A stretch of DNA of 64,000 nt from Hyphomonadaceae bacterium (GTDB taxonomy: Bacteria > Pseudomonadota > Alphaproteobacteria > Caulobacterales > Hyphomonadaceae). How positions within the stretch are numbered: the stretch's first letter is position 1; each line of letters opens with the position of its first letter. Where the stretch lies: NCBI GenBank assembly GCA_022844345.1, contig JALHLU010000014.1:1-64000 (forward strand). The letters are read 5' to 3'. Positions 10,519 to 32,536 of the stretch are shown one piece after another. The translations under genes and the position numbers were made by a program. The notes below the pieces were generated by a model. The model did not search any database. It was not told the origin of the DNA and worked only from the letters and a program-made list of their open reading frames with translations.

Positions 10519-13500
10519 ATGCGTACAGAAGTCGAGCACATGCGCGAGGCGCTCGCCTCTTATATTGAGGCGACCTACCACCTGTCTCATCCCCACGCCG
10601 TTAAGCTACGCCGCGCTCTCCTTGAAAATGGAGGTATCGCGCAAGTTCCATTTATTGAAAGTACACCGGCCTATGTTGGAGCGCGCAGCTTCGGCTCCCT
10701 GAAATTGCCCGCGGCCGTTCGTGACTTCCTGGAGCATCTTGCATCGAGGGAGGGCGGCTCCCTCCTCTTCAACCCTCCCTATTCGCATCAAGCGGACGCG
10801 CTTGAAGCGGCGATGAAGGCTGACGCTGGCGGCTCTGGAATTGTTGTGACGACTGGCACCGGCTCGGGGAAGACAGAGACCTTTCTGCTGCCGGTTCTAA
10901 GTCGACTTGCCGATGAGGCGCACGCGCGCCCTGATCACTTTGCGCACCGCGCAGTGCGGGCGCTGCTACTCTATCCCATGAACGCGCTGGTCAACGATCA
11001 ACTGGGCCGGCTCAGAATGCTGTTTGGTGCCTCGTCCGTGCGCGAATGGTTTACAGCGTCTGGCGGGCGCGCCGCCAAATTTGGGCGATACACGGGCCGG
11101 ACGCTCTACCCCGGAATGCGAGATGGTAAGCGCGACCAGACGCGTCTAAAGACGCTCGAATACTATCTGAAGATCGAAGACAGCGCCCGCGATGGCGATA
11201 GGCATGACGCAGCGCTTCTCCAAACGCTGCAGCGCAAGGGGCGCTGGCCCGCCAAGCCAGACAGCGTAATCGGCGGCTTCGATGGCCTGCGAGATTGGTA
11301 CGGCAAGCCCGGCCAACATTGGATAGACCAGGATGGTGATCCAGCGCGCGCCAATGAGCGCCCTCAAGATCCCGAACTGCTAACGCGTCACGAGATCCAG
11401 GCTGCCTCACCTGACCTCCTCGTCACCAACTACTCAATGCTCGAATACATGCTGCTGCGTCCGATCGAACGCAGTATTTTTGCGGATACGCGCGACTATT
11501 TCAAAGCGCACCCGGACGAGAAGTTCTTCCTAATTCTGGACGAAGCGCACCTCTATCGCGGCGCCAACGGGACGGAAGTCGCGTATCTAATCCGTCGGTT
11601 GCTCGACCGGCTTGAATTACCATCATCACGCGTTGTGTTCATCGCAACGAGCGCCTCCTTCTCCGACGCGGAAGCCGCAAAAGGATTCGTTGGCGGGCTG
11701 GTAGGCATCGGCGCAGAACGAATCACGACGCTGACGGGCGAGAAGCGCGCATTCGAACCTGCAGGTGTTGGACCCACTGATTTGGCAAACGCCCTCGCAG
11801 CCGTGCCGCTTGCTTGCCTTCTGTCTGCCTCCCTAGAAGAGCGCTCGTCTGTTGTTGCCCCTTTGGCCCGGATTGCTACCAACGCCAAGGGCGCTCTCGT
11901 AACAGTCGAACGAACCGACAGCCACACCGGGACGATCATCGTTACCCTGCAAGGGTTGGACGCCAGCGGCGATCGTATCGAGGAAGACGTTCTGGTCCCC
12001 GCAGGTGGGAAGGCGATCACAACCCAATCCTTCTTGATCGTCGACGGGATGCGAACGTCTGGAGGGGCCGTCGAAGTTGCACGACACTACAATCTTGGTG
12101 CCGCCAATACTCTTGGCGCCGACTACAAGGCGGATGACCTGCCCGCCGCCCTCAGCGAACTCCTCGGCAGTCTTCCAGTAGTGGGCCGTCTGAAGAACAT
12201 TACGACCGGGGCGCAATGCGCGTCTGATCCGATTGCCTCGAAAGGCGCGGCGTGGTCTTTCGCTGACCTACCGTCAGTACTCTTCCCGTCGGCGCCGCCT
12301 CACATTGCTGTGGCCGCCGTGGACGCGCTTCTTGAACTCGCTTCAATGGCGCGGCCCACACCGGACGATCCTCCCATTCTGCCCGCGCGTGTGCACATGC
12401 TCTTCCGCGGGCTTCCTGGCCTATGGGCATGTGTCAATCCGAACTGCAGCGAAATCGAACCTGGCGCACGAGGAGGTCCCACGGGCGCTCTTTACGCTGA
12501 GCCTCGCCAGAACTGCGCATGCGGTTCGCAGATCTACGAGCTTCATAGCTGTCGTTCATGCGGCCTTGCCGTCGCACGCGCCAATGTCGGATCGCCAGCT
12601 GGCGTCGAGCATCTCTGGCAGGACAACGGAGCAGCCTACGCCGGCGAAACCAGTCTTGTGTCGGCGATCCACGTCTGTCTCGAAGATCCCGACCCGCAAG
12701 CCGCAGGCGCGGTCCGGCCGGTCTATCTCGATCTGAAGTCGGGCAGGATCGACGGACAGGGCGCATCAGTGCGTGAGGTTTGGCTGCCTGCGTTGCTTGG
12801 ATCGCAACTGTTCGACAACTGTCCGAAGTGCGGCGCATCCTGCGCATCCAATTCTTCCAACGGCATCTCCGATCTGCAGACCAAAGGGGACCAGCCGTTC
12901 CAGGAACTCGTCACCGTCCAGGTGCTTGAGCAGCCGCCGCGTCCCGAAAGCAAAACGGCCCTGAAAGGACGCAAGGCTCTGGTGTTCTCGGACGGCCGTC
13001 AGACGGCATCACGCCTCGCCGGCAACATGAAGACGTTTTCGTTTCGCGACAGTCTTCGGCCGTTACTGCTCACCGGGATGGCCGAATTGGCGTCGCCCGT
13101 CTTTAAGCCCTCGCTAGACGATGCGCCGCTTGCCGTGGCCCTTGGGGCCGCGAGCCGCCACGTGCGCTTGCGGCCAGCTGGCGATTCCGAAGGGCAAATG
13201 GATCGGGCAGGAAGATCCGCACTTGAGCTTATCGGCAACGGAGATGCGGAGAATGATGATTTCCGAACACTTTCGAACCAGACGTCGCAGTTCACGCCCC
13301 TATCGGTGTTTCAGGCAATCTACGCCGTCCTCCAGGACGGCCATACCGGCTTGTTTCCGCTCGCGCTGGGAACGCTCCATGCCAAGCTGACCAAGGCCGA
13401 GCAGGGCAAGCTGCAGAAAGAACTGACGCCGCCCCCTCTGCCCGGCGTGGACGCCGATCAGGCGCGCGCAGCGCTCCTCGACTTATGGTTATGGCAGGCG

Positions 13501-16500
13501 GTGGACAAGCGCGCGATCAAGCTCCTGCACACACCAGTCAATATTGAGACTGGCCGAGGTTCGACCGGCATACGCGAATGGAATGGGCGCTTCTCGAAAG
13601 AAGTCTCTAAGCTCCTGACCGCGCAAGGCCTTGGAAAATGGCTGAAGGACGACTGGGCGACAAAGTGCGAGCCCGCGCTTCGCCACGTCTTCGGCCAGGG
13701 CGCGACAGGGACGTTCTTCGTTCAAGGCGCGAAGGTATCCCTTGATACCAGCCATGCTGTGGCTTGGCTGCGCTGCGGTCGGTGCACAAGCGTTTCTCCA
13801 CGCAACGTCTTGATCGGTGACTTCTGCGGGTACTGCGGCGGTGTGTCCAAACAGATTGATCCTCGAACCGACGGCGTGTTCCGGAGCCGCAAGGCATTCT
13901 TCCGGCGGCTGTGGGAACGGCTGAACGATCCTCACAATCCATACGCACCTCACCAACTGATCGCGGAGGAGCATTCGGCCGCGCTGAACGATTCCGGCAT
14001 GGCCAACGCCATGTCGCGCAACGAAGCATACGAATTGCGTTTCCAGGACATTCCGGTCGAACAGGACGGTCAGATCGGTTCGCCGATCGACATCCTTAGT
14101 TGCACAACGACAATGGAAGTCGGCATCGATATCGGTGGCCTGACGGCTGTCGCTCTACGAAATGTTCCTCCCGGCCGCGCGAACTATCAGCAGAGGGCAG
14201 GACGGGCAGGGCGTCGCGGCGCCGGCCTGTCGACAGTCTTCATGTTTTGCGGTGCTGACAGCCACGACCAGAGCTTCTTCCGCGATCCCGGTCCGATCGT
14301 TGCCGGGCCAGCGCCGGATCCCATCCTCAATCTCGACAATCCAGTGATCGCGCGCCGTCAGGTATTTGCTTACCTGATCGGCCGCTTTCAACAGGACCGA
14401 ATCAACACGGTTGGCGGCAGTTCAGACGTTTTCTCTTCGCTCGGCAACGTGGCGGATTTCGTGTCTGGCGCTGCTGACGTCTTTTCTCTCGCTGGTCTCA
14501 AGCAATGGATCACAGACAACGACGGGGCGCTGATTGCGGACATCAACCGGCTCTTTGTTGCGTCATGCCCGTCGCTCGATGCTGGTGCGCTTCTGGACGA
14601 ACTGCCCCTGATCCTCGAGAGCCGTCTGGCGTCAAATGCAGACGCGCCCGTGACGCCAGTCCCAGTTCCGGCCGCCGAAAGCTCCGCTGCAAACGACGGA
14701 GATGTTGAGGACGAGATCCAGGAGGATGAGGCAGATGAGGACCGGGCTATCGTCGGCGGCGGCAAGCTTCTCGATCGGCTGTTCGATGAGGGTTTGCTCC
14801 CCAAGTACGCGTTCCCGACCGATGTCGCCACGTTCAGTGTTTTCGAGGAGGATGCGGATGCTTGGAGACCTCAGCGTCGATACTCGCCGCAACAGGGACT
14901 CAACGCGGCGCTAAGCCAGTATGCGCCTGGTCATGAGGTTTGGGTGGATGGCCAGCGCTACCTGTCACTCGGCCTCTACGCGGAGTTTGAAGACGACCGC
15001 TTCGATGCCTATCGGGATAAGAAGCTCTACTATCAATGCCGCATCTGCAACTATGCCGACCTCAAGGCGTGGGAGGACGGCTATCCGGATCAGACGCGAG
15101 ATTGTCCGGCCTGCAACAGACGCGGAAGCCTCGGGCCTGCACGCCGCTGGGTGCGGCCGCCAGGATTCGCTCATCCGCCCGGGATAACGGCTCTGCCGCC
15201 GGACTTCGATCCAGGAACGCGCTCGCGTCCAACGCGGGCGACACTCGACTCGCTGCAGTTTCCTGAAAGCTCCCGCATCGGCGGGGCGACGTGGCCGACC
15301 GGTACTGGATGGGAGGGCTGGAGCGACAGCAAAACGCTCGTGGTGACCAACCGCGGCTCGCTAAGCCCGACAAGCTACGGTTTTAACTACTGCACATCTT
15401 GCGGAAGAACCGAGCCCGCGGAATTCGACCCAGCGATGCGTCAACTTGGCGGCGGCCAGCCGCATGATCGTCCGCGCCCGAAAAAGCCCAGGGAGCCGGA
15501 CAAGTGCACGGGCCGGGTTGCGAAGATTGTTCTAGGCAACGAATTCAGCACGGACGTCGCGGTTTTCCGCCTAGCCTACCCGACGACGTGGAGACTCAGC
15601 CCCGATCAGCCGTCAACCACGATTGCTGCGCGGTCTGCTGTCGAGGCGTTGCGGCGAGCGGCTTGCATGCTCGAAGACCTCGAACCGAACGACATTGATG
15701 GTGATTTCCGCTTTGCTCCGGGAAGCGGGGCAAAGCAGTTCGTCGATCTCTATCTCTATGACCAGGCCGCCGGCGGCGCAGGCTTTGTCAGAGCTGCAGC
15801 GCGAGATCCGAAAAAGCTCGTCGATGCTGCGCTCGGACTGCTGGACGGGTGCGATTGCGACGACAGTTGCTATCAATGCCTTCGATCGCACAAGAATCGG
15901 TACGATCACGCCCTGTTTGATCGCCGGATCGGCGCGGACCTTTTGCGCGCCGCTTTCAAGGGCGCGTCGCTGGTGATCGACGCTGAGCGAGAGGACTATG
16001 CGCTCGACCGCTTGAAGAGAGACCTGGAGGAGAGCGGCGCTGCGGTCACGCCCTTGAATGGAGGCCTTCTCGACTCGAAGGGGCGAGTGATCTGCCTGTC
16101 GCATCCCTTCATCGACACAGAGCCCTGCTCCGATCGTGCGAAAAAGTTGTCTGATGGAAAGCCGCGTGTCGTTGTCGACATTCTGTTGGTCTTGCGAGCA
16201 TTGCCCATTGCCTCCAACGTCGCCCTGTCACTGCCCGGGGCTGCTCCGAACGGCAGCCTCGACCCCGATCCCGCCGGGACGCCTCTCCTGACCGCTGCGC
16301 AAGCTGAGAGTGGAGACATCGCGGCGCTTTCTAAGGCGCCGTGCTTTGCAGTGCCGGATGCCGAAGATGGCGATTTTCTGTTCCGGCTCGACGCGAACAC
16401 GTTGAGCGGCAAGAAAGCCGACGGGAGCGGCGAAGTCTTCAAAGGAGCGATGTGCCTCTTCCGTCCTTTTGCAGCACCACCAACAAAGACGGACGCGTAC

Positions 16501-16698
16501 CTGATCCGCCGAACCGATGGCCACGCATTTGGCGCTACGGGCGCGGCCTGGACCGTCGGACTGCTTCAGCAGCCCGCCACTGGAGGCATGAGGGTTCGAT
16601 ACCGCGCGGCATCGCAGCATATGGAGTGCGCCAGCGAACTCATTCAACCCGCAGAGGCTGTCTCGCCGATCGCTGTCTTCGTTCGTGCGGTGGACTGA
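10519..16698 (+). CDS. DruE-like giant SF2 helicase with C-terminal DUF1998
   Basis: A 2059-residue protein with the architecture of Druantia DruE: a split SF2 helicase core, several zinc-binding inserts and a C-terminal DUF1998 region. Walker A is TGTGSGKTETF (about residue 113), DEAH is at 341-344 (LILDEAHLYRG), motif III is FIATSAS (about 375), a helicase-C entry is ALVFSDGRQTASR (about 820), motif V is TTTMEVGIDIGGL and motif VI is QRAGRAGRRG at about 1225-1234. Cys clusters occur near 640-690 (CxxC pairs), about 1505-1535 (CRICN, CPACN) and about 1620 (CTSCG). The DUF1998 signature CDCDDSCYQCLRSHKNRYDH starts near 1778. The protein is probably a nucleic-acid translocase in antiviral defence. 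It heads a three-gene operon and its stop overlaps the next ATG (TGATG). DISARM DrmA/DrmB are the alternative comparison, but those are separate proteins. Confidence 0.78.
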   Translation: MRTEVEHMREALASYIEATYHLSHPHAVKLRRALLENGGIAQVPFIESTPAYVGARSFGSLKLPAAVRDFLEHLASREGGSLLFNPPYSHQADALEAAMKADAGGSGIVVTTGTGSGKTETFLLPVLSRLADEAHARPDHFAHRAVRALLLYPMNALVNDQLGRLRMLFGASSVREWFTASGGRAAKFGRYTGRTLYPGMRDGKRDQTRLKTLEYYLKIEDSARDGDRHDAALLQTLQRKGRWPAKPDSVIGGFDGLRDWYGKPGQHWIDQDGDPARANERPQDPELLTRHEIQAASPDLLVTNYSMLEYMLLRPIERSIFADTRDYFKAHPDEKFFLILDEAHLYRGANGTEVAYLIRRLLDRLELPSSRVVFIATSASFSDAEAAKGFVGGLVGIGAERITTLTGEKRAFEPAGVGPTDLANALAAVPLACLLSASLEERSSVVAPLARIATNAKGALVTVERTDSHTGTIIVTLQGLDASGDRIEEDVLVPAGGKAITTQSFLIVDGMRTSGGAVEVARHYNLGAANTLGADYKADDLPAALSELLGSLPVVGRLKNITTGAQCASDPIASKGAAWSFADLPSVLFPSAPPHIAVAAVDALLELASMARPTPDDPPILPARVHMLFRGLPGLWACVNPNCSEIEPGARGGPTGALYAEPRQNCACGSQIYELHSCRSCGLAVARANVGSPAGVEHLWQDNGAAYAGETSLVSAIHVCLEDPDPQAAGAVRPVYLDLKSGRIDGQGASVREVWLPALLGSQLFDNCPKCGASCASNSSNGISDLQTKGDQPFQELVTVQVLEQPPRPESKTALKGRKALVFSDGRQTASRLAGNMKTFSFRDSLRPLLLTGMAELASPVFKPSLDDAPLAVALGAASRHVRLRPAGDSEGQMDRAGRSALELIGNGDAENDDFRTLSNQTSQFTPLSVFQAIYAVLQDGHTGLFPLALGTLHAKLTKAEQGKLQKELTPPPLPGVDADQARAALLDLWLWQAVDKRAIKLLHTPVNIETGRGSTGIREWNGRFSKEVSKLLTAQGLGKWLKDDWATKCEPALRHVFGQGATGTFFVQGAKVSLDTSHAVAWLRCGRCTSVSPRNVLIGDFCGYCGGVSKQIDPRTDGVFRSRKAFFRRLWERLNDPHNPYAPHQLIAEEHSAALNDSGMANAMSRNEAYELRFQDIPVEQDGQIGSPIDILSCTTTMEVGIDIGGLTAVALRNVPPGRANYQQRAGRAGRRGAGLSTVFMFCGADSHDQSFFRDPGPIVAGPAPDPILNLDNPVIARRQVFAYLIGRFQQDRINTVGGSSDVFSSLGNVADFVSGAADVFSLAGLKQWITDNDGALIADINRLFVASCPSLDAGALLDELPLILESRLASNADAPVTPVPVPAAESSAANDGDVEDEIQEDEADEDRAIVGGGKLLDRLFDEGLLPKYAFPTDVATFSVFEEDADAWRPQRRYSPQQGLNAALSQYAPGHEVWVDGQRYLSLGLYAEFEDDRFDAYRDKKLYYQCRICNYADLKAWEDGYPDQTRDCPACNRRGSLGPARRWVRPPGFAHPPGITALPPDFDPGTRSRPTRATLDSLQFPESSRIGGATWPTGTGWEGWSDSKTLVVTNRGSLSPTSYGFNYCTSCGRTEPAEFDPAMRQLGGGQPHDRPRPKKPREPDKCTGRVAKIVLGNEFSTDVAVFRLAYPTTWRLSPDQPSTTIAARSAVEALRRAACMLEDLEPNDIDGDFRFAPGSGAKQFVDLYLYDQAAGGAGFVRAAARDPKKLVDAALGLLDGCDCDDSCYQCLRSHKNRYDHALFDRRIGADLLRAAFKGASLVIDAEREDYALDRLKRDLEESGAAVTPLNGGLLDSKGRVICLSHPFIDTEPCSDRAKKLSDGKPRVVVDILLVLRALPIASNVALSLPGAAPNGSLDPDPAGTPLLTAAQAESGDIAALSKAPCFAVPDAEDGDFLFRLDANTLSGKKADGSGEVFKGAMCLFRPFAAPPTKTDAYLIRRTDGHAFGATGAAWTVGLLQQPATGGMRVRYRAASQHMECASELIQPAEAVSPIAVFVRAVD

Positions 16699-18419
16699 TG
16701 GCTCTGTTCATTCCGCCAATCGACCCCGACACGATGGAGCATCAGTCCGAAGCTGATTTCGCAAAGGCTTTGCTGAATCACTTACCGGGCGGCTACATCG
16801 TCATGCATTCTCTGCCTTGGCTTTTCCCCGCGCGTGACGACATCGATGCACCGGCGCGTGAGGGCGAGGCGGATTTTTTGATACTGCATCGCCAGTTTGG
16901 ATTGATGATCGTGGAGGTGAAGGGCGGGGAAATCACCCTCAAAGGCCGCACGTGGTATCGCCATGTCAAAGCCGGACTGAAGGAGATCAAGGACCCAGTC
17001 AAACAAGCGCGCCGATCCCTGTGGGCGTTGAAGAAGCGAATCACCCACATCTGCGGCGAGCGCATCGCTGATGCTACGGTGATATCGATGGCCCTCGGCT
17101 TCCCTCACTGCGTGTTCAAGGACACTCCGCCCGCAGATCTGCCGGCCGACGCCATTCTCACGATGGACGACCTATCGTCCATCGAAGCCGGTTTGGCGCG
17201 GGCCTTTCGAGCGGGCGGGGGCGGAAAGCGCGAACTGTCGGCGGAGGATTTTGAGGCGGTGCGCCGCGCGTTGGCGCCAGAGTTCCGTATCTATGAGCCG
17301 CTCCGTGTTAGCGTTGAGAACAACACCGAGACACTGACAAAGCTCACACGACAACAACTCCAGGTCTTGCGTGGCTTCGATTCAAATCCGCGGGCGGTCA
17401 TTGAAGGAGTGGCCGGGTCTGGTAAGACCTTGTTGGCGATGCAGCGAGCGCGTTCGTTTGCGGCGAAGCATCGCGCGGTGCTGTTCACCTGCTTCAACGC
17501 CGAACTTGCCAAGTGGTTGAGGGAAGAGTTGGCGAGTGATCTTGTCGAGAACGGTGGAAAGCTCGCCGTCTGGAATTTTCACCGCTTGGCCTCCGATCTC
17601 TGCAAACAGGCCGGTGTGGAGTTCGTGGTAAATCAGCAAAATCCGTCGAAGTGGTGGGACGAGATTGCGCCAGACCTTCTCGCCGGAGCCGCGATGGATC
17701 TCTTCCCGGACGGTCAGCCCTTCGACGCAGTTGTTATAGACGAGGCGCAGGATTTCAGCCCGAGTTGGTGGGACGCGCTCGACTATGTCTGGGATAGCAC
17801 CGGACCCATCTGGGCATTCTTGGACAAAGCGCAGAGCCTTCGCCGTGAACCGATCGATCCGCCCGTGCGCGGTGCTTTCAAGTTCTCACTTGGCGTCAAT
17901 TGCCGCAATACAAGGCGGATCGTCGCCTGCGCCAACTCTGCAACCGACAACACCAGTGAGCCTTTTGAATTGGCGCCGCTGGGGAGGCCGCCGAAGGTAA
18001 TCACGCCGCCCAACCCTGCCGCCATCAGCGGCCTGGTGCAGCAAGAAATCCGTTCGCTGCTGAGAGATCATCGTCTGCAGCCTCAGCAGATCGCCATCAT
18101 TGGGCCGTCGGCGAAGATGAAAGGACCTTTGGCAAACGTCTCGGCAGTCGATGACACGTCCTTGGTAGAGGATGCTGCGATATGGCGACAGGGAAAGGGA
18201 ATTCTCTGCAGTACGGCGCGCAGCTTCAAGGGACTGGAAGCAGATGTCGTCATTCTATGCGACTATTCTGGGCTGGGGCCGCTATTCACGCAGAGCGATC
18301 TCTATGTAGCTCTCACGCGCGCCAGGTCGCATCTGGTCATAGTGGTGCATGATCGAGCCAGCCGGGAAAAACTGGACGCTGCAATTTCGGCGGCAATAGC
18401 GGAAGGTAGCGACGCCTGA
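16698..18419 (+). CDS. NERD nuclease-domain / UvrD-type SF1 helicase fusion
   Basis: A 573-residue protein beginning with ATG at 16698, overlapping the helicase stop by one base. The N-terminal part fits a NERD (nuclease-related) domain: GEADFLIL at about residue 56 and VEVKGGE at about residue 72 supply the D...ExK pattern of PD-(D/E)XK-like nucleases. The rest is a UvrD/PcrA-type SF1 helicase with Walker A EGVAGSGKTLL (about 236), Walker B VVIDEAQDFSP (about 345), a C-terminal TARSFKGLEADVVIL and motif VI LYVALTRARSHLVIV (about 535). DNA degradation coupled to unwinding is a reasonable inference. A longer in-frame start at 16341 lies inside the preceding gene and is rejected. The stop overlaps the next start (TGATG). 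Confidence 0.85.
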   Translation: MALFIPPIDPDTMEHQSEADFAKALLNHLPGGYIVMHSLPWLFPARDDIDAPAREGEADFLILHRQFGLMIVEVKGGEITLKGRTWYRHVKAGLKEIKDPVKQARRSLWALKKRITHICGERIADATVISMALGFPHCVFKDTPPADLPADAILTMDDLSSIEAGLARAFRAGGGGKRELSAEDFEAVRRALAPEFRIYEPLRVSVENNTETLTKLTRQQLQVLRGFDSNPRAVIEGVAGSGKTLLAMQRARSFAAKHRAVLFTCFNAELAKWLREELASDLVENGGKLAVWNFHRLASDLCKQAGVEFVVNQQNPSKWWDEIAPDLLAGAAMDLFPDGQPFDAVVIDEAQDFSPSWWDALDYVWDSTGPIWAFLDKAQSLRREPIDPPVRGAFKFSLGVNCRNTRRIVACANSATDNTSEPFELAPLGRPPKVITPPNPAAISGLVQQEIRSLLRDHRLQPQQIAIIGPSAKMKGPLANVSAVDDTSLVEDAAIWRQGKGILCSTARSFKGLEADVVILCDYSGLGPLFTQSDLYVALTRARSHLVIVVHDRASREKLDAAISAAIAEGSDA

Positions 18420-25114: not shown

Positions 25115-25165
25115 CGAAGCCGCCCGTGCCTCGTTTTCGCCGTTCCGCAAATCGTACGGTTCGTG

Positions 25166-25186
25166 TCGATTCGTAGAACGATTCGA
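25166..25186. promoter_or_regulatory. Operator-like inverted repeat in the divergent promoter gap
   Basis: Arms TCGATTCGT (25166-25174) and ACGATTCGA (25178-25186) are complementary at eight of nine positions around a 3-bp centre. The repeat lies in the 262-bp gap between the leftward 965-residue/SNF2 pair and the rightward ATPase gene, where a shared regulator would bind. Confidence 0.35.
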
Positions 25187-25376
25187 CCGTGCAAAAAATC
25201 GTTTATTTTCTGAGGCCCGGCCTTGGGCAATCGTTGGACACCAAGCGAATTTGCGTCGAACTGCTGACCATTCGAGCAAAAAACGCTGATCTCGGGGTGC
25301 GCCGCGCACATCGAAGCCAAATCCTGGACTAGTGGGGTGTCACCAGCGGCCAAGCGCCGTGATCAAGGAGAATGAC

Positions 25377-27311
25377 ATGACGACCGAACCCGAGACTAGC
25401 GATCGCCTGCTCACCGAAGTAGAACGGCAGCAGAAGTACCTAGCGAAGCTCCCGAAGAATTTCAATTTCCCACTGTTTAACGCAGCACAGGCGCTCGAGT
25501 CCCAGCGTCGCAGCGGTTACCGGAACACGGCAGCAGCGGCGCGAGAGATCGTAGACAACGCGATCGAGGCCGGGGCCACCCGCGTTGACATATGCTTCGA
25601 GCGCCCGCTCACGAAGGGTAACAAGACCGCCGAGGCCATCACGTCGATCGCATTCATCGACAACGGGTCGGGCATGATCCCGAAGATGGCTCAGTACGCC
25701 CTTTCCTGGGGCGCGGGCACCCACTTCGACGATCCTTCCTTCATCGGCAAGTTCGGCTTCGGTTTGCCGAATGCATCGATCAATCAGACTCGACTGGTCG
25801 AGGTCTATACAAAGGTGCTTGGCTCGAAGACCGTCACGAAGGCGTGGCTGGATGCGCGGGACGTGAAAGATCACGGGCTTCAGCAAATTCCCGACCCCGT
25901 CGATGCCAAGCTTCCCGATTTCGTGCAGAAATATCTCGACAAGGCTGGCCTGCCATTCGATCACGGCACGGTGGTTGTCTGGGTCAATCCCGATCGCATC
26001 TCGTATCGCAAGGCGTCGGTGATGCGCGAGCACCTAGTCGATGACTTCGGCGTCACGTATCGCTATCTGCTGGACAAGGTCGAACTCCATGTCGAGAGCG
26101 CCAAGATCGAGCCGGTTGATCCGCTTTTCCTGACGCCGTCTGCTCGCTACTTCAAGTCGGCCGAAGCCGGCGGCGCCAAGCAGATCCGTGACTGGAATAT
26201 CGCGGTGAAGTATGTGCGCGACCCAGACAGCGGGATGATGGAGTTGGAAAAGGTCGAAGATGTCAGCGAGTTGGATTCCAAGGATCCCAACATCGTGGCG
26301 GCCGGGGCGATCTATGTACGAGTGAGTCGTTTTCCCTACGGCTTCGCGGAGTGGGCCGGCAAGGGCAAAAAAGCCGAGACGGACGCACACAAGCGCTTCG
26401 AAATCCGCAAAACGCGCCGCGGGATGTCGTTTGTCCGCGCCGGTCGGGAAATCGAAACGGTCGATGTGTTTCCAAAATCGACCAAGGAAATCGCCAAGGG
26501 TTTGGGCGAGTGGCCATTGCTCCAGTCCTACGCCTATCACTGGGGCATTGAAGTGCAGTTCGACCCCCGGTTGGACGAGATCTTTGGCATCACCAACGAT
26601 AAGCAAACGGTCAGGCCGATCGAGAGCCTATGGAGGTTGCTTGCCGACGTGGAAGTCGATGACCAACTCGGCAAGGAGCAGTCTTGGCAAAGCAGTACGC
26701 GTCGCGAACAGAACCTGAAACGCAAAGCGGAAAAGGCGGCGCGCGCGCAGGAGCCGACCCCCGCCGAGACGGCCGCGGCCGCCGCTGACAGCATTGGCGG
26801 GCGCAAGCCGAAGGTCGCCGATCACCACAAGGGACAAGCGCGTACCGATCTGGAGACTGCAGCCGGCAAGCGTGCCGGTATCGATCAGACGTCGATCGAC
26901 CAGGCCCGCAAGGCTCTTGAAGAGGAAGCCAGGAAACGTCCCTACGTCATCGACTTCTTCGACGATGCTCACGGCCCGTTTTACAAGCCCGATTGGGAAA
27001 GCGGCGTCCAGGTGGCTGTGCTGATAAACAGGCAGCATCCGTTCTTCCAAGTCCTCTACGGGCCGCTTCTGGACTTGCCCAACGGAGCGCAGACACAGCA
27101 AGCTCTGGATGTCATGCTGATTGCTCTCGCTCGTGCCGAACTGCAGACCGACGATGAGACGGCATCGCTCTGGTATCAGGCGCAACGCGAACGTGCCTGG
27201 AGCCCGTTTATGGCTGACGCGCTCAAGGTTCTGCATCAGAAGATGATGCCGACCGACGAGGAAGCCGCTGAAGCGCGCAATCGCGGCGAGGAACTGCAGG
27301 CAGCGGAATAG
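25377..27311 (+). CDS. GHL-family (gyrase/Hsp90/MutL/MORC-like) ATPase, paralogue 1
   Basis: A 644-residue protein with a Bergerat-fold ATPase at its N-terminus. The N box has E57 and N61 (AREIVDNAIEAG), the G1 box is DNGSG (95-99) and the G2 box is GKFGFGLPNAS (124 onward). A KQ motif (FGITNDKQTV, about residue 410) fits the switch lysine of the transducer domain of GHL ATPases. A Lys/Ala-rich linker follows and then a C-terminal domain around PYVIDFFDDAHGPFYKP and INRQHPFFQVLYGPL. The start ATG 25377 follows an AAGGAG box, and an upstream in-frame ATG at 25332 has none. It shares the rare string EPVDPLFLTP with the second ATPase at 28164, so the two are paralogues and may form a heteromeric clamp. 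Confidence 0.85.
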   Translation: MTTEPETSDRLLTEVERQQKYLAKLPKNFNFPLFNAAQALESQRRSGYRNTAAAAREIVDNAIEAGATRVDICFERPLTKGNKTAEAITSIAFIDNGSGMIPKMAQYALSWGAGTHFDDPSFIGKFGFGLPNASINQTRLVEVYTKVLGSKTVTKAWLDARDVKDHGLQQIPDPVDAKLPDFVQKYLDKAGLPFDHGTVVVWVNPDRISYRKASVMREHLVDDFGVTYRYLLDKVELHVESAKIEPVDPLFLTPSARYFKSAEAGGAKQIRDWNIAVKYVRDPDSGMMELEKVEDVSELDSKDPNIVAAGAIYVRVSRFPYGFAEWAGKGKKAETDAHKRFEIRKTRRGMSFVRAGREIETVDVFPKSTKEIAKGLGEWPLLQSYAYHWGIEVQFDPRLDEIFGITNDKQTVRPIESLWRLLADVEVDDQLGKEQSWQSSTRREQNLKRKAEKAARAQEPTPAETAAAAADSIGGRKPKVADHHKGQARTDLETAAGKRAGIDQTSIDQARKALEEEARKRPYVIDFFDDAHGPFYKPDWESGVQVAVLINRQHPFFQVLYGPLLDLPNGAQTQQALDVMLIALARAELQTDDETASLWYQAQRERAWSPFMADALKVLHQKMMPTDEEAAEARNRGEELQAAE

Positions 27312-27316
27312 TCAGG

Positions 27317-27345
27317 AGGCGGAGCGCTCACGCGCTCCGCCTTTT
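27317..27345 (+). terminator. Rho-independent terminator after GHL ATPase 1
   Basis: A perfect 10-bp stem, AGGCGGAGCG (27317-27326) with CGCTCCGCCT (27333-27342), a 6-nt loop and then a run of T. It lies 5 bp after the ATPase stop codon and separates this gene from the following three-gene unit. Confidence 0.85.
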
Positions 27346-27361
27346 CTCTGTGGCAGGGCGC

Positions 27362-27387
27362 ACTTAACCCTGTTATCTTGGTTAAGT
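27362..27387. promoter_or_regulatory. Inverted repeat upstream of the sigma-like gene (operator candidate)
   Basis: Perfect 8-bp arms ACTTAACC (27362-27369) and GGTTAAGT (27380-27387) are separated by 10 bp. The repeat lies between the terminator and the GTG start at 27499, so it probably sits at the promoter of the sigma-like/ATPase 2/DruA-like unit. Confidence 0.5.
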
Positions 27388-27498
27388 AGAGTACAGCTCG
27401 ACGACCAGTGTAGGCGCGGCCATGAGCCGCCATGTCCCCGGACGCTGCAACGGCCTTCAGCTGAGTTTTGAAGGCACAAGCAGCGAAAGGAGGGCACC

Positions 27499-28161
27499 GT
27501 GAAGAACGGCACCCCAGTCATTGACCTTAACCAACTCCTCGAAGCAGCGCTCAACGGGCGCCCTTACAACCAACTGCGCCTGGGCAAGCAGGCGCAGCGC
27601 TATGCGGCTAGCATCTCTTGGCGGATGGCGCCCGACCTCCCCGAAGACCTGCACGGCGAGGTCTTCTCAGAGGCGTTTACACTTCTTCTGGAGGCTGGTT
27701 CGGCGGCGCTCGCCAACAAGAACTGCAAGGACCTCTTTGCCGGGTGTGTGCGCAACGCCGTCCGCCGTGTCCAAGCCTCGAACGCGTCGCCCGGGCAGCG
27801 CACGCGGAAGCCCGCGCGGAAGGCTCCGCCGCCGAAAGGACGCGTTGCGGCCGAACATGTCGAACGCGTTCTCGACCCCAAGGCGGTCGAGCGTCTTTCG
27901 ACTGGGGAAGGCAATAGACGCCTTCTCGATTTCGACAACCTGCCAGATCCGGTGGGCGAGGCGCGCCTGCGCCGCGTCGAGCATCGCATCGACATTCAGA
28001 AACTATTCGTCATTGCGCCCGCGGTCGTCGAGCGCTCGTATCGAGCAATCCACCTCGAAGGAATTTCGATGGAGGCGGCCGCGCAGCAGGCCGGCATCAA
28101 GCGGTTCACGCTGAGGCGTCAATTCCTCGCCTTTTCCGAGATCGCGCGGGCCGCCGCGTAA
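27499..28161 (+). CDS. Sigma-70-like protein encoded between two GHL ATPases
   Basis: A 220-residue protein whose ends resemble sigma-70 regions 2 and 4. The N-terminal helix pair (LGKQAQRYAASISWRMAP, then DLHGEVFSEAFTLLLEAG) looks like region 2. The C-terminal segment SYRAIHLEGISMEAAAQQAG followed by IKRFTLRRQF is a region-4-like helix-turn-helix. The middle is basic and Pro/Lys/Arg-rich. The start is GTG at 27499 behind a very strong AAAGGAGGG site; no ATG is equally placed. It may be a true alternative sigma factor driving this locus or a DNA-binding subunit reusing the fold. It ends 2 bp before the ATPase 2 start, so they are one operon. Confidence 0.55.
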   Translation: MKNGTPVIDLNQLLEAALNGRPYNQLRLGKQAQRYAASISWRMAPDLPEDLHGEVFSEAFTLLLEAGSAALANKNCKDLFAGCVRNAVRRVQASNASPGQRTRKPARKAPPPKGRVAAEHVERVLDPKAVERLSTGEGNRRLLDFDNLPDPVGEARLRRVEHRIDIQKLFVIAPAVVERSYRAIHLEGISMEAAAQQAGIKRFTLRRQFLAFSEIARAAA

Positions 28162-28163
28162 CC

Positions 28164-29876
28164 ATGTCCGACCGTTCACATTCGATGCGGGGCGCGGGCT
28201 TCGGCCCCGTCCTTGCAGCGCAGAGAGCATACGCCCAGCAAGCCGAAGGCCGCTCCAAATTCGGGCTTGTAGTTCCGGAAGCCTTCATTCGCGGCATCCG
28301 TGATCTCGGCTATCGCGGCAACGGGGATGCGATCGCCGAACTGATCGACAACGCGATCCAGGCTTATGCGGATCGCGTGGACGTCGTCTTCGGCTACGCC
28401 GGATCGTCATCCGGAAAAAAACCAGTGCAACTTGCGGTCATCGACAACGGCCACGGAATGGAACCGTCGATGATCCGCATGGCGGTCATGTGGGGCGGCA
28501 CTCACCGAGAAGGCGACCGCAAGGGTTTAGGCCGGTACGGTTACGGCCTGCCGTGCTCATCGGTCAGCCTAGGACGCCGGTTTACCGTCTACTCGCAGGT
28601 GGCCGGCTCCGGCCTGCATGCCGTTTCACTGGATCTCGACGATCTTGCCGCGGGCGCCTACACCGACACAGTCGGCGACATCGTCGTTCCGAAACCCGTG
28701 CAGGCCTCCCTGCCGCCCTTCGTGCAACAGCAACTCGCAAGGGCGTATCCTTCGGGATGGCATTGCGGCACAGTCGTCGTGATCGACAAACTCGACCGGC
28801 TCGAATGGTCCACGGCGCACGGCCTTCGCGAGAACCTCTCGCGCCAGTTCGGCGCGACCTATCACAAACTTCGAAACGAAACCGCCCTGTACGTGGACGA
28901 TCGCTTCGTCGAGCCAGTCGACCCGCTTTTCCTGACGCCTCACTTTCACCTGCACGCGCTCGATGATGACCGGGCCAACGCATTTGATCCGATCCGAATC
29001 GAGGCGCGGAATCCCGAAAACCGATCATACATGGGCGCCATCAACCTCCGGTACTCATGGCTGCCGCCAAGCTTCGGGTCGATCGACAAGGGCCGCGACG
29101 CGGTCGGTCTCAACGCCAACGAACGCTTCGCGATTCTGAAGGAGTATCACGGTCTCGTCTTCAGCCGGAACGGCCGCCTGATCGATGTCCAGACGCGCAC
29201 CCCGTGGACGACGTTCATAAACAACGACCGCTACATCAAGGTCGAGATCGAGTTCTCGGCGGCTCTGGATGAGGCCTTCGGCGTCACGACATCCAAGCAG
29301 CAGGTCACTGTCTCGCCCTTCATATGGGACCTGCTGCGACGTCACGGTCTTCCAAAGGCAATCGAGCAATTGCGCAACAAAGTGCGCGAGGCCAAGGCTA
29401 TCCGGCGGATGGTGGCGCTGTGGCCGGGAGAGGGGGAGCAGCGCGTCTCGGAGCGTGCCATGGGCGTCGCCTCAACCGGGGTGCCGCGGGAGGCCAGTCA
29501 ATCGGCGTCGAGAACGCGGCCCGCCCTGTCGCCCTATCAGGTCAGAATTGAGCACGCGGCAAAGGGGCCATTTTTCCGCATCGAGGAAGCAGGGGATGTC
29601 CGCATTCTCCACCTCAACTCAGCCCATCGATTTTATGACCAGATCTATGATGCTCCCGCGTCCAACGCAGAGTTCCGGGCGGCGTTGGAAGTCCTCTTGT
29701 TCTCCCTGGGGGACGTGATCCTCGATTGCGATGGCGAAAGTGATGGCTTTGGCCAAGCCCACGTCATTTCATGGTCAGCACGGCTGGAGGCAGCCTTGAG
29801 CATGCTCGCTTCCCATCTAAGCCAGGATAGCGGTCAGGGCGAGGAAGACGACGGTGGGGAGCCGGAAGGGGGCTAG
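28164..29876 (+). CDS. GHL-family ATPase, paralogue 2
   Basis: A 570-residue Bergerat-fold ATPase. The N box is E59/N63 (AIAELIDNAIQAYAD), the G1 box is DNGHG (94-98), and GLGRYGYGLP at 121-130 is the glycine-rich lid. It shares with the ATPase at 25377 the EPVDPLFLTP string (about residue 252), a WGG/AGTH motif after G1, a switch-lysine segment FGVTTSKQQV and a C-terminal GPFF ... LNSAHRFYDQIY region, so a gene duplication is clear. The combination recalls MORC-, MutL- and TopoVI B-like clamps that close on DNA. It lacks a visible nuclease domain. The 5' end is 2 bp from the sigma-like gene; 72 bp with a strong hairpin separate it from the DruA-like gene. Confidence 0.85.
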   Translation: MSDRSHSMRGAGFGPVLAAQRAYAQQAEGRSKFGLVVPEAFIRGIRDLGYRGNGDAIAELIDNAIQAYADRVDVVFGYAGSSSGKKPVQLAVIDNGHGMEPSMIRMAVMWGGTHREGDRKGLGRYGYGLPCSSVSLGRRFTVYSQVAGSGLHAVSLDLDDLAAGAYTDTVGDIVVPKPVQASLPPFVQQQLARAYPSGWHCGTVVVIDKLDRLEWSTAHGLRENLSRQFGATYHKLRNETALYVDDRFVEPVDPLFLTPHFHLHALDDDRANAFDPIRIEARNPENRSYMGAINLRYSWLPPSFGSIDKGRDAVGLNANERFAILKEYHGLVFSRNGRLIDVQTRTPWTTFINNDRYIKVEIEFSAALDEAFGVTTSKQQVTVSPFIWDLLRRHGLPKAIEQLRNKVREAKAIRRMVALWPGEGEQRVSERAMGVASTGVPREASQSASRTRPALSPYQVRIEHAAKGPFFRIEEAGDVRILHLNSAHRFYDQIYDAPASNAEFRAALEVLLFSLGDVILDCDGESDGFGQAHVISWSARLEAALSMLASHLSQDSGQGEEDDGGEPEGG

Positions 29877-29910
29877 CGTGTGGCTTGGGTTTTTGCGATA
29901 GCGTCCGCGT

Positions 29911-29930
29911 CGGGCCGCTTCGGCGGCCCG
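29911..29930. other. Perfect 8-bp UUCG-type hairpin before the DruA-like gene
   Basis: CGGGCCGC, loop TTCG, GCGGCCCG. No T tract follows, so it is more likely an mRNA stabiliser or partial attenuator in the 72-bp gap than a full terminator. Confidence 0.6.
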
Positions 29931-29948
29931 TACGATTCCGGAGGCTAA

Positions 29949-31982
29949 GTGTCTGTCGACGAAACCCTTTTTGGACCAGGCCGACAGCGCGCCTTTTCGC
30001 CTTATCTGGCGCCGGTCGAACGCCGGCGGCTCAATAAGGCCCTCCACCTCGGCGGCGGGTTCCCTCCGAGCTTTGCCGTTGAATTGCGGGCTCTCGCGCG
30101 CCGGTACGTGGACGATGGCGATAGCAACAAGCTGCGAGCTGTCTGTCTGCTCGTTGCTGACCTGTTTGAGCAGGGTTGGCGCGTCGCAGTCGAGGCTGGC
30201 CAGATCACTGTCGAGCCACCTGGGATCGCTCGCGAGGGACAACAGAGTATCGACGACGTCAAAGCTCGCGTGCGCCAAGGTCTTCAGACTACACGGCTGA
30301 AACAACTCAAGGAACCATCGGTCCGGCACTTCCTTGAGAGAATGGAACGTCGAACCAAACGGCCTCAGGGAAAATTCTGCGTCCTCGACCTCATCGACAA
30401 TGGCGCCGACTTAGCGAAGGCATTCAAGCGCGTACGGGTGAAAAATCCTGATCTCCGCGCCGAGCGCCTCGCCAATATCGTCGATCCGGTAATCGAGATT
30501 TGCGAGGCCGGGGCAAAGTGCCCCGACACTGGTCTCAACCTGATCGACGTGTGGCGCTATTTCCGTCACACATGGGCGCACGAGTATCGTCCAGTACCTG
30601 GCCGGCAGATGATGGTCCTGATCCGCAATGCGGCCCGGCCTCGCCGGCCCGTGATGGGCATCGCCATGCTCGCGAGCCCGGTTATGCGGCTAGGCGCGCG
30701 CGACCATTGGATAGGATGGACTCGCGAGGCCGCCGAAGCCCAAATCCAGCAAGGCGTGTGGCCAGCGAAGGACTTCATCGCTGCTCTCAAGAAGCGGCTC
30801 AACCAATCCATCAGGGCCATCCGCTGGGACGATTTGTGCTCAGAGGACGAGGTCCGAAACCCGACAGAGCGCGTTTCGTTGAGATTGGAACAGAAGTCGT
30901 CAGGCGCAGCCTTCGCTCGCGAGTCCCAACTCAAGGCTTACTACCAGAAGCACCGGAAAGCCGATGGCGATGGAAAGGTGCGCCCGCATCGCGGGAAGCT
31001 GACTGGTGCTTCATCGACGACCGATTGGCGGAAGGCGTCCAAAGACCTGTTGTTCGTGCGCAAGCGCGCGGAAACCATGGCGCAGTTGCTTTTCGCGAAG
31101 CGGATTCTTCAGGCCGCTCCCCGCAGAAGGCCGCCTACGGAAACGCTGCAGCAACTGTTCGCTTCGCCGGATGGGCAGCGGGCCATTGATATTATCTTGG
31201 CTGAGTTTCGAAAGGCGGGCCTGTCGAGCGAAGTTGCCGATGTTAGTGTTTGCGGTGCTGTCCATCCTTACAACGAGATCCTCGGCGGCAAACTCGTGGC
31301 GCTCATGTTGACTACACTTGAGATGAGAGAAGCTTACGCGAAGCGCTATGGCGGCCAGATCAGTTTCATTGCCTCTCAGATGGCGGGAAGGGCCGTCAGA
31401 AAGCCAGCGCGATTGCGCGTTCTGACGACAACCAGCCTCTACGGCGTCGGATCGAGCCAGTACAACCGCCTAGAGCTACGAGCAAAAGAGTATCCCTCCC
31501 TTCCTCATGACGTGCGGTGGGGCAATATCGGCAAGAGCCTCACCGGCGGGTTCGGCACCTTGCACTTGGGGAATGAGACTGCCGAGGCTCTGCGCACGAT
31601 GGCGCTGACGCGCCACGACGCTCGACGCGTCAACAATCGCTTTGGAGAAGGGACCAGTCCAAGGCTCCGGCAGATTCGCGAAGGGCTAGACGCGCTGGGC
31701 CTAAAAAGTAGTTCGTTTCTCCATCACGCGACACCGCGAATATTCTACGGTTGCGAATTGGAACCGAATTCCCGCTACGCTCTCCTTGGGTTGCCAGCGC
31801 CTCCGTCCAGGCCAATCAGTCGGGAAGAGATCGCGGACGGCTGGCGTCGCCGGTGGTTGAGCAATCGCGTGCTCCGTCCTGAGACGTTGGAAGCCCTTGC
31901 CGCCTTGGGCGAGCAGAGCATACGCGCAAGTCTGCATGTAGACGCGTCGGGACAATTCCTGCTCCCGATCACCTCCGACTAG
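29949..31982 (+). CDS. DruA-like (DUF4338) protein
   Basis: A 677-residue protein with hallmarks of the DUF4338 family renamed after Druantia protein DruA: VWRYFRHTWAHEYRPVPGRQ, then MGIAMLASPVMRLGARDHW running into IGWT (about residues 235-257), HPYNEILGGKLVALMLTT (about 438-455) and the AYAKRYGGQISFIAS segment. A long insert separates the two halves, making it larger than the usual 350-500-residue DruA. The GTG start at 29949 follows GGAGG by 6 bp. Its biochemical role is not known for the family. Occurrence with a DruE-like helicase 13 kb away supports a Druantia-type defence locus. It is the last gene of the island on this strand. Confidence 0.75.
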   Translation: MSVDETLFGPGRQRAFSPYLAPVERRRLNKALHLGGGFPPSFAVELRALARRYVDDGDSNKLRAVCLLVADLFEQGWRVAVEAGQITVEPPGIAREGQQSIDDVKARVRQGLQTTRLKQLKEPSVRHFLERMERRTKRPQGKFCVLDLIDNGADLAKAFKRVRVKNPDLRAERLANIVDPVIEICEAGAKCPDTGLNLIDVWRYFRHTWAHEYRPVPGRQMMVLIRNAARPRRPVMGIAMLASPVMRLGARDHWIGWTREAAEAQIQQGVWPAKDFIAALKKRLNQSIRAIRWDDLCSEDEVRNPTERVSLRLEQKSSGAAFARESQLKAYYQKHRKADGDGKVRPHRGKLTGASSTTDWRKASKDLLFVRKRAETMAQLLFAKRILQAAPRRRPPTETLQQLFASPDGQRAIDIILAEFRKAGLSSEVADVSVCGAVHPYNEILGGKLVALMLTTLEMREAYAKRYGGQISFIASQMAGRAVRKPARLRVLTTTSLYGVGSSQYNRLELRAKEYPSLPHDVRWGNIGKSLTGGFGTLHLGNETAEALRTMALTRHDARRVNNRFGEGTSPRLRQIREGLDALGLKSSSFLHHATPRIFYGCELEPNSRYALLGLPAPPSRPISREEIADGWRRRWLSNRVLRPETLEALAALGEQSIRASLHVDASGQFLLPITSD

Positions 31983-32500: not shown

Positions 32501-32536
32501 CGATGATGCCTACCGATCACTTGGTAGGCATCATCG
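32501..32536. terminator. Perfect 14-bp hairpin after the DUF736 gene
   Basis: Arms CGATGATGCCTACC (32501-32514) and GGTAGGCATCATCG (32523-32536) with an 8-nt loop, starting 9 bp after the DUF736 stop. There is no T tract, so it is a terminator-like or mRNA-end structure, or an operator. Its position makes the in-frame ATG at 32503 of the next gene an unlikely start. Confidence 0.55.

What the first reader, a model, noticed from the sequence alone, without database searches (positions are those of the whole stretch)
10519..31982. Extended Druantia-related locus combining DruE-like and DruA-like proteins with paired GHL ATPases and extra helicases
Seen: a 2059-residue SF2 helicase with DUF1998, a 677-residue protein with DUF4338 hallmarks, a NERD-UvrD helicase, an SNF2 helicase, two GHL ATPases, a sigma-like protein and two large unknowns, arranged as three contiguous transcription units and bounded by ICE genes on both sides. 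Known: Druantia type I is DruABCDE, type II has DruM/F/G with DruE, and type III has DruH with DruE. None of these as I know them includes paired GHL ATPases, a sigma-like factor or NERD and SNF2 helicases. The whole may be a new Druantia-like type, or two or three defence systems packed side by side.
Basis: partly seen in the sequence, partly recalled or inferred. Interest (0 to 1): 0.9.

Follow-up and report, generated by a model that had tools for sequence, protein, structure and literature searches.

The report
Modular Druantia locus with MORC-like ATPases
A mobile element in a bacterium carries a nine-gene locus, probably an anti-phage system, in which two parts that evolve separately, a MORC-like ATPase plus DruA cassette and a fixed five-gene DruE helicase-nuclease block, have been joined, which shows how such defence systems may be built by swapping modules.

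Summary
In detail: all nine genes are present. DruE scores 1430 bits and DruA 942 bits against PADLOC models. The 320-aa unknown is a divergent DruD. The 1030-aa unknown (P5) has no PADLOC model but is homologous, by iterated profile, to a ~950-aa protein that stands where DruB and DruC would be in four-gene DruA-P5'-DruD-DruE loci.

The locus joins two modules:
- A rigid block, P5>SNF2> <DruD <NERD-UvrD <DruE, with one gene order and a monophyletic DruE.
- A cassette of MORC-like GHL ATPase plus long DruA. GHL lies directly upstream in 69 of 87 long-DruA loci and in 0 of 10 short-DruA loci.

Trees show cassettes exchanging DruE partners. Twelve genomes have a cassette with no DruE or P5 detected. 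One genome has the block with short DruA and no GHL.

The first GHL and the sigma-like gene form an add-on: 14 of 14 loci with that GHL clade have the sigma-like gene, against none of 58 others except one fragment.

DruB and DruC were not found, so canonical type I membership fails. Defence function and mechanism are inferred, not shown.

The parts
10519..16698 (+). DruE: YprA-like SF2 helicase with DUF1998/MZB (2059 aa)
   Evidence: PADLOC DruE1 1430 bits, Pfam DEAD/Helicase_C/MZB; block DruEs form one clade of 16 in 49 rows, SH-aLRT 100
16698..18419 (+). NERD nuclease-UvrD helicase (573 aa)
   Evidence: Pfam NERD 43 bits, UvrD families; PADLOC RTasNERD-Hel 152 bits; Walker A and a possible ExK-type motif in the NERD part
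18419..19381 (+). P3: divergent DruD (320 aa)
   Evidence: direct PADLOC DruD1 E=1e-4; 13 of 16 members of its iterated family hit DruD1, best 3.6e-120
19362..22220 (-). SNF2/RapA-like SF2 helicase (952 aa)
   Evidence: PADLOC DpdE 130, BrxHI 126, DrmD 92 bits; the six plasmid records with P5 are the six best SNF2 records
22217..25309 (-). P5: uncharacterised protein, true start probably near 25114 (helical N part, beta-sandwich-like middle, helical C part)
   Evidence: no PADLOC match in 22 family members; linked by iterated profile and clustering to the ~950-aa protein between short DruA and DruD; AF2 pLDDT 72.6, pTM 0.45, residues 1-66 below pLDDT 50
25332..27311 (+). GHL1: MORC/MutL-like GHKL ATPase (659 aa)
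   Evidence: HATPase_c_3 50.7 bits; intact motifs; member of the 14-row GHL1 clade
27314..27345 (+). terminator-like hairpin after GHL1
   Evidence: -26.5 kcal/mol, z -4.57; tail read from the sequence; not listed by the simple scan
27499..28161 (+). SIG: protein with weak sigma-70-like HTH similarity (220 aa)
   Evidence: NF009191 E=0.0036 over residues 140-201; homologues in 14 of 14 loci with GHL1-clade ATPase; in the 58 other loci none at E<=1e-6, one 81-codon fragment at 2.7e-4 (L023) and one hit at 0.003 (L044)
28164..29876 (+). GHL2: MORC/MutL-like GHKL ATPase next to DruA (570 aa)
   Evidence: HATPase_c_3 59.4 bits; closest solved relative by sequence MORC2, E=3.5e-6
29949..31982 (+). 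Long DruA (DUF4338, 677 aa) with mainly helical insertion about 266-426
   Evidence: PADLOC DruA1 942 bits, Pfam DruA; AF2 pLDDT 88.4; insertion missing in 10 of 10 short DruAs, median 153 residues in 94 long ones
32503..33669 (+).
   Evidence: family in 13 of 104 stretches, near GHL-DruA (11) or DruA-SspGH (2); 10 of 13 have two hydrophobic segments, two have one, L050 none; two strong hits in 398 genomes scanned without DruA anchor, both beside GHL1-SIG-GHL2-DruA

Best explanation
The locus is a modular, Druantia type I-like anti-phage system carried by a conjugative element, made by joining two evolutionary modules.

Module 1 is a cassette of GHL ATPase(s) plus long DruA, with a GHL1+SIG add-on and the nearby F12 gene. 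Module 2 is a rigid five-gene block, P5-SNF2 convergent with DruE-NERD/UvrD-DruD.

Most likely mechanism (inferred; no step tested here):
- MORC/MutL-like GHL ATPases, in this locus a GHL1-GHL2 pair, close as an ATP-driven clamp on invading or replicating phage DNA.
- They signal through the helical insertion that long DruA has and short DruA lacks.
- DruA with P5 and DruD licenses DruE and SNF2 to translocate on DNA with single-stranded character.
- The NERD-UvrD protein supplies the cutting activity, because the C-terminal nuclease of type I/II DruE is predicted inactive (PMC12458937).
- SIG is a regulator or DNA-binding adaptor for the GHL pair. F12 may be a membrane effector.

Shown here: the gene content, the two modules, their linkage, the exchange of partners, and the association of GHL with the long form of DruA.
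For: Profiles for the genes. DruD and P5 homology.

Block order P5>SNF2> <DruD <NERD <DruE, without exception in the 15 loci whose DruE was seen; in L038 and L040 P5 lies beyond the stored stretch, and in several others one end is cut. Block DruE is one clade, 16 of 49 rows, SH-aLRT 100.

Long DruA: GHL directly upstream on the same strand in 69 of 87 loci with at least 1.5 kb upstream; median gap 6 nt over 73 GHL-DruA pairs. Short DruA: 0 of 10, one of them (L107) with only 0.9 kb upstream. The 266-426 insertion is missing in all 10 short DruAs.

GHL1 clade and SIG: 14 of 14 loci, against 58 others with one fragment and one weak hit.

Module exchange: context needs 22 changes on the DruA tree (73 rows, 6 labels, minimum 5) but 10 on the DruE tree (38 rows, 10 labels, minimum 9); the label sets differ. 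Sister cassettes L034/L035 and L085/L103 have different DruE modules.

Intact GHL motifs. MORC2 as best PDB relative. MutL/MORC-helicase-nuclease precedent (PMC2292703 passages). DruE of Druantia III engages ssDNA-containing intermediates (PMC13192584 abstract).
Against: No experiment links any of these proteins to phage defence. Twelve genomes carry the GHL-DruA cassette with neither DruE nor P5 detected, so the modules may not need each other. One genome (L060/G414) has the two about 14 kb apart. The DruA fold search found no significant solved structure, so the GNAT-like reading rests on PMC10853773 and non-significant hits. P5 has no interpretable fold match. Heterodimerisation of GHL1 and GHL2 is untested. 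The sigma assignment is weak. The link of P5 to the ~950-aa protein rests on iterated profiles; direct phmmer hits of P5 are limited to 15 loci, those of the block or DISARM-like kind.
Confidence: 0.55

Rival explanations
1. Two separate defence systems side by side: a stand-alone GHL-(SIG)-GHL-DruA-F12 system and a DruE block, each complete by itself.
For: 12 genomes have the cassette but no DruE or P5 detected; trees show exchange of partners; cassette and block about 14 kb apart in L060; 8 of the 13 F12 genes lie near cassettes with no DruE in the stretch.
Against: 13 of 15 block loci whose DruE was seen have the cassette directly beside them. The block without GHL (G707) keeps a short DruA next to DruE. 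DruA, DruD and DruE are parts of the known type I system.
Confidence: 0.3
2. A canonical Druantia type I (DruABCDE) with accessory genes.
For: DruA1, DruD1 and DruE1 profiles match; a GHL-long DruA cassette also adjoins sets that resemble DruB/C/D/E by gene family and size in L067 and L069, and in part L080 (these proteins were not profiled).
Against: No DruB or DruC among the matches shown for the ten proteins scanned (lists for DruE and SNF2 were cut at 25 of 26 and 25 of 34), while the same library finds both in P. putida L110 (762 and 902 bits); P5 shows no detectable homology to that DruB or DruC.
Confidence: 0.07
3. A DISARM derivative that has taken a DruE helicase.
For: P5, SNF2 and NERD-UvrD also occur with a DrmA helicase (682 bits) and a DUF1998 protein in Rhizobium L016, with a helicase of the same family and a P3-like domain in Azospirillum L015, and by layout in G491.
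Against: The window helicase is DruE (1430 bits) with DUF1998 in the same chain; no DrmB, DrmC or methyltransferase among the matches shown for the scanned window proteins; no DruA or GHL was found in the stretches of those loci.
Confidence: 0.05
4. Not defence: DNA-processing genes serving the conjugative element itself (transfer or maintenance).
For: Lies between TraG and ParB/ArdC of a conjugative element.
Against: Related loci lie in other settings, such as a repABC plasmid, long chromosomal contigs and viral contigs, in several phyla; their transfer genes were not surveyed. DruA, DruD and DruE homologues are published defence genes.
Confidence: 0.03

Closest known systems
Druantia type I (DruABCDE)
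   Same: DruA, DruD and DruE families; DUF1998 helicase core
   Different: no DruB or DruC found; P5 instead; long DruA; GHL ATPases, SIG, NERD-UvrD and SNF2 added; gene order differs
Four-gene DruA(short)-P5'-DruD-DruE loci (L105, L106, Nitrosococcus L111, G489)
   Same: P5/DruD/DruE homologues
   Different: short DruA without the 266-426 insertion; no GHL or SIG and no SNF2 of this kind seen
DISARM-like loci of Rhizobium and Azospirillum (DrmA + DUF1998 protein)
   Same: P5, SNF2, NERD-UvrD and, in Azospirillum, a P3-like domain
   Different: DrmA/DUF1998 split helicase instead of DruE; no DruA or GHL in the stretch
SspFGH/DndFGH-like systems with a DUF4338 domain (PMC10853773; L013, L014, L052, L054-L056, L086-L088, L094, L095, L097, L101, L102)
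   Same: long DruA domain, separate or fused
   Different: partners are SspG- and SspH-like proteins (profiled for L056 and L102, others by clustering); GHL and these together only in L096
MORC/paraMORC ATPases in restriction-modification operons (PMC2292703)
   Same: GHKL ATPase next to SF2 helicases and nucleases
   Different: no methyltransferase among the scanned proteins; direct neighbour is DruA
ARMADA (PMC12458937)
   Same: YprA-like helicase plus BrxHII/RapA-like helicase; UvrD-family helicase in type II
   Different: ARMADA includes a PglX-like methyltransferase, not found among the scanned window proteins; the window helicase scores as DruE1

Membership tests
Druantia type I | DruA (DUF4338) | tested here: met
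   PADLOC DruA1 942 bits; Pfam PF14236 110.6 bits
Druantia type I | DruB | tested here: not met
   not among the matches shown for ten window proteins (two lists cut at 25); positive control L110 762 bits
Druantia type I | DruC | tested here: not met
   not among the matches shown for ten window proteins (two lists cut at 25); positive control L110 902 bits
Druantia type I | DruD | tested here: met
   weak direct hit E=1e-4; 13 of 16 members of the iterated family match DruD1
Druantia type I | DruE with DUF1998 | tested here: met
   DruE1 1430 bits; MZB 44.8 bits
Druantia type II / III / IV | DruM/F/G, DruH or DruF/L beside DruE | tested here: not met
   not among the matches shown for ten window proteins (two lists cut at 25)
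ARMADA | PglX-like methyltransferase with a BrxHII-like helicase | tested here: not met
   helicase present (BrxHI 126 bits) but no methyltransferase family among the ten proteins
DISARM | DrmA, DrmB, DrmC | tested here: not met
   DrmA only at helicase-motif level (53 bits against 1430 for DruE1); no DrmB or DrmC among the matches shown
MORC/paraMORC GHKL ATPases | intact GHKL motifs and similarity to MORC | tested here: met
   E..DNA and DNGxG motifs in both; GHL2 best PDB match MORC2 E=3.5e-6; GHL1 was not searched there and the S5 domain was not tested
MZA system | MzaB ATPase with its partner genes | tested here: not met
   MzaB scores 45 and 64 bits against a cut-off of 850; no other Mza match shown
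any anti-phage system | protection against phage | not testable with these tools
   needs experiment

The most novel reading that the evidence does not exclude
A MORC-like GHL ATPase coupled to long DruA, optionally with a GHL1+SIG add-on and a protein with C-terminal hydrophobic segments (F12), is a defence module in its own right. It plugs into at least three, probably four, different DruE modules and also stands alone, so that Druantia type I, the P5-type loci and related arrays are assembled from interchangeable sensor-like and effector-like halves.
Probability: 0.4. Interest if true: 0.78.

Novelty: new variant of a known kind. Interest (0 to 1): 0.62.

Why it matters
It gives Druantia type I-like systems an unrecognised component, MORC/MutL-like ATPases, and ties it to one structural form of DruA, those with the roughly 150-residue helical insertion. 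It names a conserved protein, P5, that no PADLOC 2.0.0 model matched although it recurs across DruA/DruD/DruE loci and DISARM-like loci. Trees indicate that the DruA side and the DruE side evolve as exchangeable halves. This makes a simple question testable: which half senses and which half destroys. The natural block with short DruA and no GHL (G707) is a ready comparator.

Tried and rejected
P5 as DruB or DruC: rejected. No PADLOC match in 22 family members, and hhalign against one DruB and one DruC gave probability under 1% (single-sequence templates, so limited power).

P5 function from structure: no E<=0.001 match in the PDB; pTM 0.45. DruA function from structure: no E<=0.001 PDB match. 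Acetyltransferase hits were among the non-significant ones. BFVD gave two giant-virus proteins at E about 1e-7, both uncharacterised.

SIG outside these loci: no plasmid match at E<=0.001, not even the Leisingera and Roseivivax homologues, so that search was too weak to tell. In 398 genomes of the order there was one clear match besides the window (53 bits, G536, beside GHL-DruA) and three of about 20 bits. Too few to judge.

SIG and GHL1, result against a clean rule: at a relaxed threshold L023, a single-GHL locus, keeps an 81-codon SIG fragment (E=2.7e-4) and L044 a weak hit (E=0.003). L023's closest GHL relative, L028, has the full set, so loss as well as gain is likely.

F12: no Pfam, PADLOC or PHROGs match. 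The weak hit in G593 (23.9 bits) was not followed up; the region was fetched but not analysed. Hydrophobic segments come from a simple hydropathy window, not a membrane-protein predictor.

att site from the tRNA-Thr at 51446: no second exact copy of its 3' end of 14 nt or more in the window.

Limits of the survey. The genome scan kept the best 80 of 267 relatives. From these and the plasmid, viral and genome loci, 92 long-DruA loci were used and five with under 1.5 kb upstream were dropped. Of the five 'neither' loci, L100 does have GHL genes by gene calls, L104 is cut, and L083 lies near a contig end. Related loci are not independent (L010/L038, L047/L098, L091/L092), so Fisher values describe the sample only. 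In the DruA tree, 73 rows with a classified context were kept and the others left out. Trees are quick IQ-TREE searches with SH-aLRT only. Some DruE-less genomes are drafts or MAGs.

Literature. No paper in the library held Druantia together with GHKL, HATPase, MutL or MORC. DUF4338 is in 3 papers. The library lacks most subscription papers. Doron 2018 was not read; type definitions come from passages.

Full report
1. What is there. The interval holds nine long genes, identified by profile searches against PADLOC, Pfam and NCBIfam, except P5, which matches none. On the plus strand: DruE (10519-16698, DruE1 1430 bits, DUF1998/MZB), a NERD-UvrD protein (start at 16698) and a 320-aa protein. These three are coupled by TGATG stop-start overlaps. 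On the minus strand: P5 (22217-25309) followed by an SNF2 helicase (19362-22220), overlapping as ATGA. On the plus strand again: GHL1 (25332-27311), a weakly sigma-like protein SIG (27499-28161), GHL2 (28164-29876) and DruA (29949-31982, DruA1 942 bits). Both GHL proteins keep the E..DNA and DNGxG motifs, and the closest solved relative of GHL2 by sequence is MORC2 (E=3.5e-6). A strong hairpin with a T-rich tail follows GHL1, although the simple scan did not list it, so the right arm is probably two transcripts.

2. Surroundings. The locus sits between T4SS/TraG genes (1716-8475) and ParB (33678-35852), ArdC (38290-39222) and a DUF3363 protein with a sub-threshold relaxase match (46417-48483). 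It is cargo of a conjugative element; I identified no integrase. ParB- and ArdC-like genes of the same families also lie on the Leisingera plasmid, upstream of the locus there.

3. The unknowns. The 320-aa protein is a divergent DruD: its iterated family includes 13 of 16 members that match PADLOC DruD1, best 3.6e-120. P5 matches no PADLOC model, nor do 21 family members. By iterated profile and clustering it is homologous to a ~950-aa protein between short DruA and DruD in four-gene loci such as Nitrosococcus. It is not detectably related to the DruB or DruC of Pseudomonas putida. Its model has a helical N part, a beta-sandwich-like middle and a helical C part, without a significant fold match.

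4. The block. SNF2, P5, DruD, NERD-UvrD and DruE form a fixed convergent array, P5>SNF2> <DruD <NERD <DruE. No exception was seen in the 15 loci whose DruE was seen: window, L010, L011, L022, L023, L028, L035, L038, L040, L060, L073, L081, L085, L089 and G707. In L038 and L040 P5 lies beyond the stored stretch, and in several others one end is cut. L019, L071, L075 and L076 show parts of the block cut by contig ends. Block DruEs are one clade (16 of 49 rows, SH-aLRT 100). In plasmids, the six records with P5 are also the six best SNF2 records. Two of these (Paracoccus, Leisingera) carry DruE. Of the other four, two were examined (Rhizobium L016, Azospirillum L015); they carry a split DISARM-like helicase of one family, shown as DrmA (682 bits) for L016. 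The accessory set is therefore shared between Druantia-like and DISARM-like loci.

5. The cassette. Long DruA has a GHL gene directly upstream on the same strand in 69 of 87 loci with at least 1.5 kb upstream; the median gap over 73 pairs is 6 nt. Fourteen have SspG/SspH-like neighbours, one of them together with GHL, and five have neither by this rule, though one of the five, L100, has GHL genes by gene calls. Short DruA has no GHL in 10 of 10 loci, one of which (L107) has only 0.9 kb upstream. All 10 short DruAs lack the mainly helical insertion at residues 266-426 of the window protein; 94 long forms have a median of 153 residues there, the lowest being the cut L104 with 61. The N-terminal parts differ too. 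The natural control is G707: the same five-gene block with short DruA and no GHL.

6. GHL1 and SIG. In a tree of 90 GHL proteins, the first ATPase of most paired loci forms one clade of 14 rows (SH-aLRT 100), while the second ATPases are scattered among single ones. In four paired loci (L057, L064, L099, L100) the first ATPase lies elsewhere and there is no SIG. SIG homologues occur in all 14 loci of the clade. In the 58 other loci there is none at E<=1e-6, one 81-codon fragment (L023) and one weak hit (L044). In L053, where the GHL1-clade gene lies after DruA, a SIG-like gene follows it. GHL1+SIG behaves as a unit that has been gained or lost several times.

7. Exchange of modules. On the DruA tree (73 rows, six context labels), partner context needs 22 changes (minimum 5, shuffled mean 45.4). 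On the DruE tree (38 rows, ten labels) it needs 10 (minimum 9, shuffled mean 23.5). The label sets differ, so the contrast is a guide, not a formal test. Sister DruAs L034/L035 and L085/L103 have different DruE modules. The cassette also adjoins P5'-DruD-DruE in several loci, a DruE set with another helicase (F10) in eleven, and sets resembling DruB/C/D/E in L067, L069 and in part L080 (by gene family and size only). Of 42 genomes searched for DruE, 15 had none at E<=1e-30; 12 of these carry a GHL-DruA cassette, and in all 12 P5 was not found either.

8. An unanchored check. Searching 398 genomes of the order with P5 found five: the window; short DruA-P5'-DruD-DruE (G489, G676); block with short DruA (G707); a locus of the DISARM-like layout (G491; its helicase was not profiled). 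Searching 398 genomes with F12 gave two strong matches, the window and G536, both beside GHL1-SIG-GHL2-DruA, and one weak one, not analysed. G536 is the genome of L046 (identical DruA region), so it is not an extra case.

9. F12. Its family is found in 13 of 104 stretches: eight near cassettes with no DruE in the stretch, three near cassettes with DruE, two near DruA-SspGH loci. Ten of the 13 have two hydrophobic segments, two have one and the short L050 has none. It is a candidate effector.

10. Mechanism (inference). MORC and paraMORC ATPases occur in restriction operons with SF2 helicases and nucleases and were proposed to loop DNA (PMC2292703 passages). DUF4338 was described as GNAT-like and fused to DndF (PMC10853773 passages); my fold search neither proves nor excludes this. 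DruE of Druantia III engages ssDNA-containing replication intermediates (PMC13192584, abstract only), while the C-terminal nuclease of type I/II DruE is predicted inactive (PMC12458937 section 8). I therefore propose that the GHL pair and long DruA recognise or mark the target, and that the DruE block unwinds and cuts it, with NERD as nuclease.

11. Known or new. DruA, DruD and DruE are known families, and long DruA is already a PADLOC model. In what I read (PMC12458937 sections 3, 5, 7, 8, 26 and passages; PMC8565338, PMC11090510, PMC13316683, PMC12137116 and PMC8011034 passages) and in the searches, I saw no description of GHL ATPases with Druantia genes, of P5, or of this block. PMC12458937 mentions unappreciated diversity among Druantia I and II; its supplementary tables were not available here and may include such loci. 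The locus is best called a new variant of Druantia type I-like systems; DruB and DruC were not found, so it is not type I as defined.

Searches were added; the SIG rule gained its two weak exceptions, the insertion was counted in all DruA rows, and several 'all' and 'none' were narrowed.

Noticed in passing
32503-33669 (+): Fast-evolving gene with two C-terminal hydrophobic segments that recurs near GHL-DruA and DruA-SspGH loci; candidate membrane effector.
   Followed up: partly
27314-27345 (+): Strong hairpin with T-rich tail directly after GHL1, splitting the right-hand unit into two probable transcripts.
   Followed up: partly
29911-29930 (+): GC-rich hairpin with a TTCG loop in the GHL2-DruA gap, without a T tract.
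   Followed up: no
L015, L016, G491 region (L139-L140): P5, SNF2 and NERD-UvrD with a DISARM-like helicase (DrmA shown for L016; same family in L015; G491 by layout) and no DruA in the stretch: a DISARM-like array not seen in the papers read.
   Followed up: partly
L013, L014, L052, L054-L056, L086-L088, L094, L095, L097, L101, L102: Long DruA beside or fused to SspF/G/H-like proteins in haloarchaea, Bacteroidota, Bacillota and others; in L013, L088 and L094 also with a DruE on the opposite strand.
   Followed up: partly
L023 7994-8236 (+): 81-codon fragment similar to SIG just upstream of a single GHL gene, in a locus whose close relative L028 has the full GHL1-SIG-GHL2 set; looks like a remnant.
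   Followed up: no
DruA model, BFVD search: Two giant-virus proteins (Faunusvirus A0A3G4ZXG3, Yasminevirus A0A5K0UAJ3) match the DruA fold at E about 1e-7.
   Followed up: no
39885-40907 (+): AbiEii-type nucleotidyltransferase gene near ArdC on the same element.
   Followed up: no
51446-51521 (-): tRNA-Thr (CGT) near the right side of the element; no second exact copy of its 3' end in the window.
   Followed up: partly
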